Origin: Arthrobacter sp. SLBN-112
Lineage (GTDB): Bacteria > Actinomycetota > Actinomycetes > Actinomycetales > Micrococcaceae
Reading direction: 5' to 3'
NCBI RefSeq assembly: GCF_006715225.1
Contig: NZ_VFMU01000001.1
Coordinates: forward strand, 2,604,001 to 2,668,000
DNA: 64,000 nt
In this document: positions 17,949 through 31,088 of the stretch, in pieces
Layout: each line of letters begins with the position of its first letter
Numbering within the stretch: position 1 is the stretch's first letter
Program-made: the position numbers and the translations under genes
The notes under the pieces: generated by a model
Seen by the model: the letters and a program-made list of their open reading frames with translations, nothing else
Told to the model about the DNA's origin: nothing
The model's database searches: none

Positions 17949-18422
17949 CTACGCCCCCTCTGAACCGCGGTCCAGCAGGGGCTGCACCCGGAAGGGGATC
18001 AGTTCGCCCATGGCCAATGCGGTGTCAGCGCGTTCCACGCCATTGCAGGCAAGGATCTTGCCGTTGATCCGGAACAGGTCCTCGGCATCCCTGGCCACCA
18101 CGCGCAGCAGCAGGTCCGCTGAACCCGTCAGCCCGTAACCCTCCAGGACCTCGGGGATGGCGGCGATCTCCTCCGCCAGCTGCCCCAGCTTCTGCTGCTG
18201 CACATGGACGGAGATGAAGGCCATGAGCGGATACCCCAGGGCCACTGGATTGATGCGCCGTTCAAAGGACAGGAAGACGTGCTTTTTCTCCAGCTGGGCC
18301 ATGCGCGCCTGGACCGTATTGCGGGACAGGCCCAGCTTCTGCGCGAGTGCCACGACGGTGCGGCGCGGATCCTGCGCGAGCGCTGCCAGCAGGCGGGTGT
18401 CAGTGCCATCCAAAGCTCGCAT
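17949..18422 (-). CDS. Lrp/AsnC-family regulator, probable bkd regulator
   Basis: About 157 residues: an N-terminal winged helix-turn-helix (LDGTDTRLLAALAQDP then LAQKLGLSRNTVQARMAQLEKK) and a C-terminal RAM effector domain (AFISVHVQQQK through ELIPFRVQPLL). Lrp/AsnC proteins bind amino acids and control their metabolism. This gene is divergent from bkdA by about 190 bases, the same arrangement as BkdR in other bacteria, so control of the keto acid dehydrogenase operon is likely. The frame opens at 18449; the ATG at 18422 (MRALDGTD) matches the family start better. Confidence 0.9.
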   Translation of the reverse strand: MRALDGTDTRLLAALAQDPRRTVVALAQKLGLSRNTVQARMAQLEKKHVFLSFERRINPVALGYPLMAFISVHVQQQKLGQLAEEIAAIPEVLEGYGLTGSADLLLRVVARDAEDLFRINGKILACNGVERADTALAMGELIPFRVQPLLDRGSEGA

Positions 18423-18489
18423 AATGCGCAACGCTAGCACGGTCTCCAAGCGCCACGTAGGGCATTCTGCTCAACATGATCCGCAGTGG

Positions 18490-18518
18490 TTGTACCCGAT
18501 GGGCATTGTGAGTAGGGT
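18490..18518 (+). promoter_or_regulatory. Putative bkdABC promoter
   Basis: TTGTAC (18490-18495) and TAGGGT (18513-18518) have the ideal 17-base spacing and lie about 97 bases before the bkdA start. A GGGGC/GCCCC hairpin (18529-18544) falls near the expected transcript start. Confidence 0.45.
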
Positions 18519-18614
18519 CACAGTATCTGGGGCAATGACGCCCCGAAGGCCGGTGGCGGCAGGGCCAAAAGCCCGACAACCGCTGGTCAACGACGTACGA
18601 AGGTTGCGGCAATC

Positions 18615-28928: not shown

Positions 28929-28930
28929 CC

Positions 28931-29698
28931 ATGGACCCGAACAGCCCCTTCGCACCGAGGCCCGAAGGCGTCCGCCCTGAATACCGCCGGGCGGCAGGAC
29001 AGCAGCATGAGACACCGCCGGACGGGACCGGTGCCAAGGGCTGGACGCGCAACGAACTCGCCGCACGGGTGGCCAGGGAGCTTCGCAACGGCCAGTACGT
29101 GAACCTGGGCATCGGGATGCCCACCCTGATCCCCAACTACATTCCCGACGGCGTGGAAGTGGTGCTGCACTCCGAGAACGGGATCCTCGGCGTCGGCCCC
29201 TACCCCGCTGAGGACGCGGTGGATCCGGACCTCATCAACGCCGGCAAGGAAACCGTCACGGTCAACCGGGGAGCCGCGTTCTTCGATTCGGCAACATCCT
29301 TTGGCATGATCCGGGGCGGCCACGTGGACCTCGCCGTCCTGGGCGCCATGGAGGTGGCCGCCAACGGGGACCTGGCCAACTGGATGATCCCGGGCAAGAT
29401 GGTCAAAGGCATGGGCGGGGCCATGGACCTGGTGTTCGGTGCCAAGCGGGTCATCGTGATGATGGAGCACGTGGACCGCAACGGCAACCCGAAGATCGTC
29501 CAGCAATGCTCACTGCCGCTGACCGGCAAGGGCTGTGTGGACCGGATCATCACCGACCTCGCCGTCATTGATGTCGTCAAGGACAATGGCGCCTCACGCC
29601 TGGTGCTTCGCGAACTGGCCCCCAATGTCTCTGCCGAGGACGTGGTGGCGGCCACCGGTGCGGACCTGTTCGAGGAAGACCGGGAACTCACCGTATGA
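28931..29698 (+). CDS. scoB: 3-oxoacid CoA-transferase subunit B
   Basis: A 255-residue beta subunit containing the catalytic Glu in LHSENGILGVG (about residue 82). N-terminal motif VNLGIGMPTLIPNYIPDG and later GGHVDLAVLGAMEVA are typical. About 38 extra residues, hydrophilic and Pro-rich, precede the normal family start (WTRNELAARVARELR); an internal start is possible but none has a better ribosome site. The stop overlaps the next gene's ATG (ATGA at 29695-29698). Confidence 0.92.
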   Translation: MDPNSPFAPRPEGVRPEYRRAAGQQHETPPDGTGAKGWTRNELAARVARELRNGQYVNLGIGMPTLIPNYIPDGVEVVLHSENGILGVGPYPAEDAVDPDLINAGKETVTVNRGAAFFDSATSFGMIRGGHVDLAVLGAMEVAANGDLANWMIPGKMVKGMGGAMDLVFGAKRVIVMMEHVDRNGNPKIVQQCSLPLTGKGCVDRIITDLAVIDVVKDNGASRLVLRELAPNVSAEDVVAATGADLFEEDRELTV

Positions 29699-30252
29699 CT
29701 GACGGAAACGGTCCGGCTTCCCGCCATGAGGACGACGGCGGCAGGAGGGTCATCGAGCAGCGCGGGCTGTACTTCGACGAGCTGGAGGAAGGCGTGCTGT
29801 ACGCCCACCGTCCCGGACGCACGGTGACCGAAACCGACAACGTCCTCTTCACCACGCTCACCATGAATACCCAGGCGCTGCACCTCGATGCCGCCTGGAG
29901 CGCCGGGCAGCCCTTTGGCCAGCGGCTGGTGAACTCGATGTTCACTCTCGCCACCATGGTGGGCCAGTCCGTCACCCAGCTCACCCAGGGAACCATCATT
30001 GCCCAGCTGGGCCTGACGGACGTCACGTTCCCGCACCCCCTGTATCACGGCGACACGTTGTACACGGAGACAGCCATCACCGGCAAGCGGCTTTCTTCCT
30101 CACGCCCAGGCCAGGGCATCGTTACCATGGAGCACACCGGGCGCAACCAGGACGGAACGGTGGTGGCCCGGGCCACCCGAAGTTGCCTGATGTGGACGCG
30201 GGATGCCCACCACAAGGCGCAGGACGCCGGACAGGAGACAATGCCGGTATGA
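29695..30252 (+). CDS. MaoC-like enoyl-CoA hydratase
   Basis: A 185-residue hot-dog protein of the MaoC family. The family segment reads NTQALHLDAAWSAGQPFGQRLVNSMFT: the hydratase Asp is present, but where many R-specific hydratases have His (IVHG) this reads VNS. In M. tuberculosis the corresponding gene (Rv2499c) lies in the same kind of operon, next to a CitE-like lyase. Here it is likely to hydrate 3-methylglutaconyl-CoA, taking the place of the usual crotonase-type hydratase, which is missing from the operon. Coupled to both neighbours by 4-base overlaps. Confidence 0.85.
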   Translation: MTDGNGPASRHEDDGGRRVIEQRGLYFDELEEGVLYAHRPGRTVTETDNVLFTTLTMNTQALHLDAAWSAGQPFGQRLVNSMFTLATMVGQSVTQLTQGTIIAQLGLTDVTFPHPLYHGDTLYTETAITGKRLSSSRPGQGIVTMEHTGRNQDGTVVARATRSCLMWTRDAHHKAQDAGQETMPV

Positions 30253-31088
30253 CATTCGTAATGGGCCCCGCACTGCTGTTCTGCCCCGCCGACCGGCCCG
30301 AGCGCTACCAGAAAGCCGCAGCGCGGGCGGACGCGGTGATCCTGGACCTTGAAGACGCCGTGGCCCCGGCGGACAAGCAGCGCGCCCGGGGTGCCATCCT
30401 TGCCCAGTTGGGAACCACTGGTGTGGAACCGGAGCTCGAACCCAGCTGCACCATCGTCAGGGTGAATCCCGTTGGTACGGAGGAGTTTGAAAAGGACCTG
30501 CACTGCCTGGCCCATACGCCGTACCGCACGGTGATGCTGGCCAAGGCCGAATCGGCCGAACAGCTCAAGGCGCTCGAGGGCTACCAGGTGATTGCCCTCT
30601 GCGAAACGGCCTTAGGCGTGCTCAATGCGCCGGCCATCGCCGCCGCTCCCAACGTGGTGGGCCTGATGTGGGGCGCCGAAGACCTGCTGGCCAGCCTGGG
30701 AGGTACGTCCAGCCGTAGGGACGACGGCGGCTACCGGGCCGTGGCCCTGCATGCCCGCTCCGCCGTCCTGCTGGCGGCCCGCGCCTACGGCAAGGAAGCG
30801 GTGGACGCCGTCTACACCAACATTCCCGACCTCGACGGACTGGCGGCCGAAGCCGCCGACGCAGTGGCCTCGGGCTTCAGCTCGAAAGCCTGCATCCATC
30901 CCAGCCAGGCGGCGGTGGTCCGCAAAGCCTACGCACCATCGGAAGACGAGGTGGCCGCGGCTGTTGCCCTCCTGGAGGCCGCAGGGTCAGCCGGATCGGG
31001 AGTGTTCCAGTACCAGGGGAAGATGATCGACGGGCCCATCCTCAAGCACGCCCAGGAAATCGTCCGCCGCGCCGCTGCGAAAGCATAA
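30249..31088 (+). CDS. CitE-like (HpcH/HpaI) 3-hydroxyacyl-CoA lyase
   Basis: A 279-residue TIM-barrel CoA lyase of the citrate lyase beta family. Motifs are LFCPADRPERYQKAA, VILDLEDAVAPADK (metal-binding Glu/Asp), GLMWGAEDL and SKACIHPSQ near the CoA site. The M. tuberculosis relative Rv2498c cleaves (R)-3-hydroxy-3-methylglutaryl-CoA, so this gene probably supplies the final lyase step of leucine breakdown to acetyl-CoA and acetoacetate. The frame opens at 30183; the ATG at 30249 overlaps the MaoC stop (ATGA) and fits the family start. Confidence 0.88.
   Translation: MTFVMGPALLFCPADRPERYQKAAARADAVILDLEDAVAPADKQRARGAILAQLGTTGVEPELEPSCTIVRVNPVGTEEFEKDLHCLAHTPYRTVMLAKAESAEQLKALEGYQVIALCETALGVLNAPAIAAAPNVVGLMWGAEDLLASLGGTSSRRDDGGYRAVALHARSAVLLAARAYGKEAVDAVYTNIPDLDGLAAEAADAVASGFSSKACIHPSQAAVVRKAYAPSEDEVAAAVALLEAAGSAGSGVFQYQGKMIDGPILKHAQEIVRRAAAKA

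What the first reader, a model, noticed from the sequence alone, without database searches (positions are those of the whole stretch)
17949..31088. Branched-chain amino acid locus built like the M. tuberculosis Rv2495c-Rv2506 region, with a CitE/MaoC finish
bkdABC, a TetR repressor, carboxylase beta and alpha, FadE19-type dehydrogenase, CoA-transferase A/B, MaoC hydratase and CitE-like lyase are all present, but the usual crotonase hydratase and HMG-CoA lyase (HMGL type) are not. In M. tuberculosis the CitE-like lyase cleaves (R)-HMG-CoA. The content suggests that leucine is broken down here through the (R)-isomer, ending with a CoA-transferase that uses the acetoacetate. Order is reshuffled: sco genes lie inside the operon, and the Lrp gene is divergent from bkdA.
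Basis: partly seen in the sequence, partly recalled or inferred. Interest (0 to 1): 0.75.

Follow-up and report, generated by a model that had tools for sequence, protein, structure and literature searches.

The report
Leucine breakdown operon, (R)-type ending
A soil actinobacterium carries a regulated leucine-degradation gene set like the one known from mycobacteria, ending in a hydratase and lyase pair that probably works on the mirror-image form of a key intermediate; in the related clusters examined, this ending and the classical lyase never occurred together.

Summary
The gene content is real. The window (4.4 Mb genome; closest named CitE match Pseudarthrobacter phenanthrenivorans, 94%) has lrp<>bkdABC, then tetR<>accD1-accA1-fadE19-scoA-scoB-maoC-citE, the counterpart of the mycobacterial BkaR regulon. 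Two exact copies of the published BkaR operator core lie between tetR and accD1; the genome has four exact cores, the other two before an acyl-CoA dehydrogenase (window 1780) and fadA-fadB. CitE keeps the eight Rv2498c active-site residues named in the 2019 paper. Of 93 related carboxylase clusters read, 42 carry an HMGL-type lyase, 26 maoC+citE, none both, 25 other. MaoC is best read as (R)-face 3-methylglutaconyl-CoA hydratase partnered with CitE as (R)-HMG-CoA lyase; ScoAB and thiolase then use the acetoacetate. Verdict: new member of a known system with a useful comparative result. Stereochemistry is untested; itaconate remains a possible second function.

The parts
17949..18449 (-). Lrp/AsnC-type regulator, divergent from bkdA
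   Evidence: Pfam AsnC_trans_reg and HTH_AsnC; 165-base gap to bkdA
18615..19784 (+). bkdA, E1 alpha of branched-chain 2-oxoacid dehydrogenase
   Evidence: E1_dh; passes TIGR03181, a model named for pyruvate dehydrogenase E1 alpha; branched-chain role inferred from context
19784..20794 (+). bkdB, E1 beta
   Evidence: Transket_pyr and Transketolase_C
20791..22215 (+). bkdC, E2 acyltransferase
   Evidence: 2-oxoacid_dh, lipoyl and E3-binding domains
22231..22899 (-). TetR-family repressor, BkaR counterpart
   Evidence: TetR_N and TetR_C_24; divergent from accD1; 47-55% identical to the TetR beside accD1 in six named Mycobacterium-group loci (L270, L277, L279, L280, L283, L289)
22958..22973 (.). 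operator 1, exact BkaR core
   Evidence: core consensus from PMC3920632
22984..22999 (.). operator 2, exact BkaR core
23047..24654 (+). accD1, 3-methylcrotonyl-CoA carboxylase beta subunit
   Evidence: best PDB hits 9yx0 (carboxyl transferase domain protein, 882.2 bits) and 4q0g (AccD1, 880.7); MCC beta 3u9r 758.2; geranyl-CoA carboxylase 484.4; entries named propionyl-CoA carboxylase at most 287.5 except 9tps, 768.3
24662..26935 (+). accA1, biotin carboxylase/carrier alpha subunit (start 24662 or 24668)
   Evidence: Biotin_carb_N, CPSase_L_D2, Biotin_carb_C, BT_MCC_alpha, Biotin_lipoyl; starts read from the sequence
26938..28101 (+). fadE19-type acyl-CoA dehydrogenase, presumed isovaleryl-CoA dehydrogenase
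   Evidence: acyl-CoA dehydrogenase domains; best PDB hit 7szv, acyl-CoA dehydrogenase, 660 bits, while listed entries named isovaleryl-CoA dehydrogenase score at most 229.3, so the substrate is inferred from context
28137..28928 (+). scoA, 3-oxoacid CoA-transferase subunit A
   Evidence: TIGR02429 above cut-off; best PDB hits are succinyl-CoA:3-ketoacid CoA-transferases
28931..29698 (+). scoB, 3-oxoacid CoA-transferase subunit B
   Evidence: TIGR02428 above cut-off
29695..30252 (+). maoC hydratase, presumed (R)-specific 3-methylglutaconyl-CoA hydratase
   Evidence: MaoC_dehydratas; RipB/Ich model 150.1 bits, below cut-off 340; maoC within 200 bases of citE in 76 of 80 named loci
30249..31088 (+). 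CitE-like lyase of Rv2498c type, presumed (R)-HMG-CoA lyase
   Evidence: residue check
1710..1725 (.). third exact BkaR core operator, 54 bases before the gene at 1780
1780..2970 (+). acyl-CoA dehydrogenase (acyl-CoA oxidase 4 / glutaryl-CoA dehydrogenase-like), predicted regulon member
   Evidence: the same gene follows the core in 9 of 20 same-genus loci around one core per genome

Best explanation
The locus is a leucine-degradation regulon of the mycobacterial BkaR kind. Proposed steps: BkdABC makes isovaleryl-CoA from 2-oxoisocaproate; FadE19 makes 3-methylcrotonyl-CoA; AccD1/AccA1 carboxylates it to 3-methylglutaconyl-CoA; MaoC adds water on the face that crotonases do not use, giving (R)-HMG-CoA; CitE cleaves (R)-HMG-CoA to acetyl-CoA and acetoacetate; ScoAB moves CoA from succinyl-CoA to acetoacetate; the thiolase FadA, behind the same operator elsewhere in the genome, splits acetoacetyl-CoA. 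The TetR protein represses from two operators between itself and accD1 until a pathway intermediate builds up. Shown here: gene content, operator sites, residue conservation, exchange of the two endings. Inferred: every enzyme activity, the stereochemistry, repression and its ligand.
For: CitE: best PDB matches 1z6k, 6aq4, 1u5h, 1u5v (256-270 bits). PMC6689899 (parts 1-3 of 5 read) gives 6AQ4 as Rv2498c and reports (R)-HMG-CoA lyase activity and no growth of the mutant on leucine; its Arg64, Glu112, Met133, Gly135, Ala136, Glu137, Asp138, Val181 each align with the same residue here (numbering counted by hand along). Operators: two exact copies before accD1, four in 4.4 Mb, reversed control 0; 143 in 37 same-genus genomes against 9 for the reversed pattern (my sum). 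In the 93 accD1 loci 47 exact copies, 39 of them 7-199 bases before the accD1 match (counted by hand). Exchange: of 93 accD1 loci 42 have HMGL, 26 CitE+MaoC, 0 both, 1 MaoC alone, 24 neither; Fisher 3e-9, ignoring kinship; 4 changes between the two endings on the accD1 tree. None of the 42 HMGL-cluster genomes has a CitE match of 240 bits or more; 10 of 26 CitE-cluster genomes have no HMGL match at 1e-40. Separately drawn named set: MaoC within 200 bases in 76 of 80, HMGL in 0 of 80. Face rule: MaoC-type (R)-hydratases and crotonases give opposite hydroxyacyl isomers (recalled, established), and for (E)-3-methylglutaconyl-CoA the R/S label carries over (my own derivation).
Against: No activity was measured. 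The genome holds one HMGL-type lyase and a general crotonase. 16 of 26 CitE-cluster genomes also have an HMGL-type match somewhere, and 6 of 26 have a crotonase match within 11 kb. Rv2498c also cleaves (S)-citramalyl-CoA, and the named residues do not separate substrates: by eye on alignment A1 a 38%-identical relative (L059) keeps 6 of the 8. MaoC-citE pairs occur without accD1 in the stretch drawn in some genomes (L056, L116, L117, L126, L127). The named set has two loci without a maoC match (L231, which has accD1-accA1-citE, and L256). bkdA has no exact operator.
Confidence: 0.8

Rival explanations
1. Dual use: the contiguous scoA-scoB-maoC-citE block also (or mainly) degrades itaconate: CoA-transferase makes itaconyl-CoA, MaoC hydrates it, CitE cleaves (S)-citramalyl-CoA to pyruvate and acetyl-CoA.
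For: Rv2498c does both reactions at like efficiency (kcat/Km 3.9e5 and 2.3e5, PMC6689899). A review states that Rv2503c shows Ict and Rv2499c Ich activity (PMC13307414, passage). In 28 of the 33 named loci with scoA, scoAB directly precede maoC, which puts transferase, hydratase and lyase in pathway order (my tally of the listing). MaoC-citE pairs exist without accD1 in the stretch drawn.
Against: RipB and RipC models score far below cut-off (150.1 against 340, 148.0 against 375 bits). 72 of 80 named citE loci carry accD1 and maoC too. The operators tie the block to the carboxylase and thiolase genes. ScoAB look like ketoacid transferases.
Confidence: 0.35
2. Leucine goes by the classical (S) route here, through the HMGL-type protein at C1:1206489 and a general crotonase, and CitE/MaoC serve something else.
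For: The HMGL passes the family cut-off; best PDB match 2cw6, mitochondrial HMG-CoA lyase, 213.8 bits. An EchA8-like crotonase is present.
Against: The HMGL sits between an IclR regulator and a family III CoA-transferase, in a stretch that also holds a resolvase and a solute transporter; no operator with up to 1 mismatch in that 18 kb; no homologue above 41% identity in 36 congeners and none at 1e-30 in 18 of them; 36 of 36 have CitE (split in two pieces in G029).
Confidence: 0.12
3. The carboxylase is not a methylcrotonyl-CoA carboxylase, so the cluster handles another branched acid.
For: No NCBIfam model passes its cut-off for accD1; one PDB entry named propionyl CoA carboxylase beta, 9tps, scores 768 bits.
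Against: 4q0g, named AccD1, scores 880.7 bits and MCC beta subunits 758 and 733; other entries named propionyl-CoA carboxylase at most 287.5. M. tuberculosis AccD1-AccA1 is a proven MCC (PMC4347857, passages). The alpha chain has the MCC-alpha BT domain.
Confidence: 0.04

Closest known systems
Mycobacterial BkaR regulon, Rv2495c-Rv2506 / MSMEG_4710-4718 (PMC3920632, PMC4347857; passages)
   Same: accD1-accA1-fadE19-maoC-citE gene set, bkdABC next to it, divergent TetR, two operator cores with the published consensus, a thiolase behind the same operator
   Different: bkdABC lie upstream, beside Lrp, not downstream of citE; scoAB sit between fadE19 and maoC rather than before accD1; no fadD35 lies between tetR and the carboxylase genes here (the rest of the genome was not searched for it); a further acyl-CoA dehydrogenase has an operator
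[quoted passage not shown]
   Same: protein family, the eight named active-site residues, operon neighbours
   Different: activity here untested
Streptomyces liu cluster SCO2776-2779 (PMC9636800, passages)
   Same: carboxylase subunits and acyl-CoA dehydrogenase, a putative regulator gene (sco2775) beside them
   Different: classical HMG-CoA lyase in place of maoC-citE; the paper found no liuC homologue in that cluster
Pseudomonas/Yersinia itaconate genes ict-ich-ccl (rip)
   Same: transferase, hydratase and lyase in one block
   Different: RipB and RipC models score well below cut-off; here the block is part of a leucine gene set

Membership tests
BkaR-regulated leucine operon | divergent TetR gene with two 16-bp operator cores before accD1 | tested here: met
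BkaR-regulated leucine operon | accD1, accA1, fadE19, hydratase, citE gene set | tested here: met
BkaR-regulated leucine operon | bkdABC under the same control | tested here: inconclusive
   no exact operator at bkdA; bkdABC is a separate unit beside Lrp
BkaR-regulated leucine operon | repressor binds the operators | not testable with these tools
   needs a binding assay
(R)-HMG-CoA lyase, Rv2498c type | named substrate and Mg-contact residues | tested here: met
   8 of 8 identical; not diagnostic, a 38%-identical relative keeps 6
(R)-HMG-CoA lyase, Rv2498c type | cleaves (R)- but not (S)-HMG-CoA | not testable with these tools
   assay needed
citrate lyase beta subunit CitE | TIGR01588 cut-off | tested here: not met
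   148.2 against 443.4 bits
itaconate RipB/RipC | NF038241 and NF038242 cut-offs | tested here: not met
   150.1 against 340; 148.0 against 375
classical Liu cluster | HMGL lyase and crotonase LiuC in the cluster | tested here: not met
   no match to the HMGL query or two crotonase queries in window 10001-36000
methylcrotonyl-CoA carboxylase | beta subunit nearest to proven MCC | tested here: met
   4q0g 880.7, MCC beta 758.2; the one higher hit, 9yx0, bears only the name carboxyl transferase domain protein
methylcrotonyl-CoA carboxylase | carboxylates 3-methylcrotonyl-CoA | not testable with these tools
   assay needed
succinyl-CoA:3-ketoacid CoA-transferase | A and B subunit family models | tested here: met
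   TIGR02429 235.0 against 128.5; TIGR02428 331.5 against 243.55 bits
hydroxymethylglutaryl-CoA lyase (the far gene L002) | NF004283 cut-off | tested here: met
   290.4 against 246 bits; role in leucine not shown

The most novel reading that the evidence does not exclude
Actinobacteria have two mirror-image endings for leucine breakdown that plug into the same carboxylase gene cluster: an HMGL lyase served by an unlinked hydratase, or the closely paired MaoC-CitE. MaoC is then the missing 3-methylglutaconyl-CoA hydratase with (R)-face chemistry, exchanged together with CitE several times. In Arthrobacter-like soil bacteria the addition of scoAB just before maoC turns the same block into a combined leucine and itaconate cassette.
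Probability: 0.4. Interest if true: 0.65.

Novelty: new member of a known kind. Interest (0 to 1): 0.45.

Why it matters
The (R) route of leucine breakdown was called unprecedented when shown in M. tuberculosis (PMC6689899). The comparison here suggests that it is spread through soil and environmental actinobacteria, often behind a conserved operator, and alternates with the classical route. It names a testable candidate, MaoC, for the 3-methylglutaconyl-CoA hydratase, in soil bacteria where genetics is simple. It also warns that calling these CitE genes citrate lyase is misleading, and that absence of HMGL and LiuC from a cluster does not mean absence of leucine breakdown.

Tried and rejected
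Rejected: citrate lyase reading of CitE (far below the model's cut-off). Rejected: strict genome-wide exclusion of HMGL and CitE; 16 of 26 CitE-cluster genomes have an HMGL-type match elsewhere, so exclusion holds within the cluster and, in the other direction, for the 42 HMGL-cluster genomes. Rejected: one shared operator for both endings; exact cores were found in 21 of 26 CitE/MaoC loci but only 6 of 42 HMGL loci and 6 of the other 25 (my tally of the table). Rejected: reading the locus as one operon. Promoter and terminator scans gave no more than chance (1 against 1.1, 7 against 7.5). With 1 mismatch the operator scan gives 15 sites against 10 for the reversed control, and with 2 mismatches in the window 5 against 1.97 expected, so only exact cores are used; the reversed control is 0 in the own genome but 9 in all over the 37 same-genus genomes.

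Limits. 95 accD1 matches of 659 bits or more (197 genomes), 93 read, G245 and G215 not fetched. Several contigs end inside the stretch, so 'neither' (24) is partly truncation; 9 of those 24 have a strong CitE and 15 an HMGL elsewhere (4 of them both), 4 have neither. The genomes are related, so the Fisher value overstates. The tree is a quick one, 31 of 90 inner branches open. The 200 loci over 4500 bases that gave 127 exact cores and 0 reversed were mostly chosen for this cluster and are not all independent. Only 4 of the 9 crotonase matches were tested against NCBIfam (best 25 models shown each, none named for methylglutaconyl-CoA) and 2 against PDB, where 1hzd (methylglutaconyl-CoA hydratase) scored 146 against 368 for the best hit and 100 against 132. 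No structure prediction and no search of the 5.8-billion-protein set was run.

Literature: 7 searches ran. 'maoc' with 'methylglutaconyl' stood together in 2 papers, neither on this system by title (listing only). 'rv2499c' stood in 12 papers, three of which I saw in passages. PMC3920632 already speculates that Rv2499c is the hydratase of branched-chain breakdown, and a review states Ich activity for it. An assignment to (R)-face methylglutaconyl-CoA hydration was not in those passages; the other nine papers and papers outside this library were not seen.
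Full report
What is there. The stretch 17949-31088 holds lrp (minus strand) divergent from bkdA-bkdB-bkdC, then a TetR gene on the minus strand divergent from accD1-accA1-fadE19-scoA-scoB-maoC-citE. Gaps inside the last unit are 2 to 35 bases, and scoB/maoC/citE overlap by 4 bases each, which suggests translational coupling. The window lies in a single-contig chromosome of 4.4 Mb. The closest named match of its CitE is Pseudarthrobacter phenanthrenivorans, 94% (records very near the window's genome may be left out there), so the host is probably a Pseudarthrobacter; that name is my inference.

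Regulation. Balhana et al. 2013 (PMC3920632, passages) give the BkaR operator core as GTTA(N)T(N4)A(N)TAAC, present twice before bkaR, with accD1 to bkdB and the thiolase fadA4 significantly derepressed in the mutant and bkdC below significance. The window has two perfect cores between tetR and accD1 (22958-22973, 22984-22999) and one at 1710-1725. The whole genome has four perfect cores and none of the reversed control pattern. The third precedes an acyl-CoA dehydrogenase by 54 bases; the fourth precedes the fadA frame, followed by fadB, by 77 bases. In 37 same-genus genomes every one has at least two cores, 143 in all against 9 for the reversed pattern (my sum). Of 20 same-genus loci, one core per genome: 2 lie between accD1 and tetR, 9 before the same dehydrogenase, 3 before fadA, 1 inside the start of a fadB-like frame (L293), 2 near another carboxyltransferase gene, and 3 (L295, L306, L309) gave no match to my queries.

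The lyase. CitE matches 1z6k, 6aq4, 1u5h and 1u5v best. The Rv2498c paper (PMC6689899; parts 1 to 3 of 5 read, plus passages) describes 6AQ4 as Rv2498c with (S)-citramalyl-CoA, reports lyase activity on (R)-HMG-CoA and (S)-citramalyl-CoA, and shows that the mutant fails on leucine and on itaconate. Counting along the printed alignment, the eight residues named there are identical here. They are not diagnostic: a 38%-identical relative keeps six. The citrate lyase and RipC models are not passed.

Two endings. In 197 genomes of the class I found 95 strong accD1 matches and read the surroundings of 93. 42 have an HMGL-type lyase, 26 have maoC plus citE, none has both, 1 has maoC alone, 24 have neither. 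No family in this sample has both endings. The accD1 tree needs 4 changes between them, so the exchange does not look like a single event. Genome-wide, none of the 42 HMGL-type genomes has a CitE match of 240 bits or more; of the 26 CitE-type genomes 10 have no HMGL match at 1e-40 and 16 do. A crotonase match lies within 11 kb in 6 of the 26 and 6 of the 42, so the hydratase of the HMGL type is mostly unlinked. Exact operator cores are in 21 of the 26 but only 6 of the 42 (table), although a TetR gene stands beside accD1 in many of the latter; the operator is thus not common to both types in this form.

Named set. In 80 named loci found by CitE, maoC lies within 200 bases in 76, accD1 is present in 73, an HMGL match in 0, an exact operator in 51, scoA in 33. 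They include two assemblies named Acidimicrobiaceae, outside the class if binned rightly.

The hydratase. Crotonases give (S)- and MaoC-type hydratases (R)-3-hydroxyacyl-CoA (recalled, established). For (E)-3-methylglutaconyl-CoA the substituent ranking keeps the same label, so MaoC should give (R)-HMG-CoA, the isomer that Rv2498c cleaves. That MaoC goes with CitE and in none of 93 clusters with HMGL fits this. It remains an inference.

The far HMGL. The genome search found one HMGL-type protein at C1:1206489, 213.8 bits to mitochondrial HMG-CoA lyase. It lies between an IclR gene and a CaiB-type transferase; the surrounding 18 kb also hold a resolvase and a solute-binding transporter and no operator-like site. 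Of 36 other same-genus genomes 18 have no such protein at 1e-30 and the rest at most 41% identity, while all 36 have CitE (split in G029; G027 is only 68% complete). So it looks acquired and not the conserved leucine lyase, although it could act on (S)-HMG-CoA.

The CoA-transferase. scoAB are of the succinyl-CoA:3-ketoacid kind. In the 33 named loci with scoA (tallied by hand from the listing) scoAB directly precede maoC in 28, lie before accD1 in 3 and after citE in 2. Recruitment to the same cluster at three places supports acetoacetate as the end product. It also builds a transferase-hydratase-lyase block in the order of itaconate breakdown, and a review reports such activities for the M. 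tuberculosis counterparts (PMC13307414, passage). I therefore keep itaconate as a second function, not a replacement.

Judgement. The anatomy and the operators make this a member of the known mycobacterial system, with reshuffled order. The added value is the operator evidence, the within-cluster exclusion of the two endings, and the pairing of MaoC with CitE.

Noticed in passing
window 1710-2970: An exact BkaR-type operator 54 bases before an acyl-CoA dehydrogenase (acyl-CoA oxidase 4 / glutaryl-CoA dehydrogenase-like), about 21 kb from the main operators; the pairing recurs in 9 of 20 same-genus loci. Its substrate is unknown.
   Followed up: partly
L111:2336-5772 (genome C1:2919335-2922771): fadA-fadB preceded by an exact operator, a likely end of the leucine route.
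   Followed up: partly
L302 and L304: Exact operator cores 224 and 237 bases before a stretch 35-37% identical to accD1 (match begins at query residue 28) in two congeners, possibly linking propionyl-CoA use to the regulon.
   Followed up: no
L056, L116, L117, L126, L127: maoC-citE pairs with no accD1 in the stretch drawn; function there open, itaconate is a candidate.
   Followed up: no
L002 and L112 (genome C1:1198000-1216000): HMGL-type lyase with a family III CoA-transferase, IclR regulator, transporter and a resolvase nearby: an apparently acquired catabolic stretch.
   Followed up: partly
L170 (G183): Carboxylase cluster with maoC but no citE beside it, the one such case among the 93 loci.
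   Followed up: no
L240 and L261: Assemblies named Acidimicrobiaceae carry accD1-accA1-maoC-citE with TetR and an exact operator, so the system may reach beyond the class.
   Followed up: no
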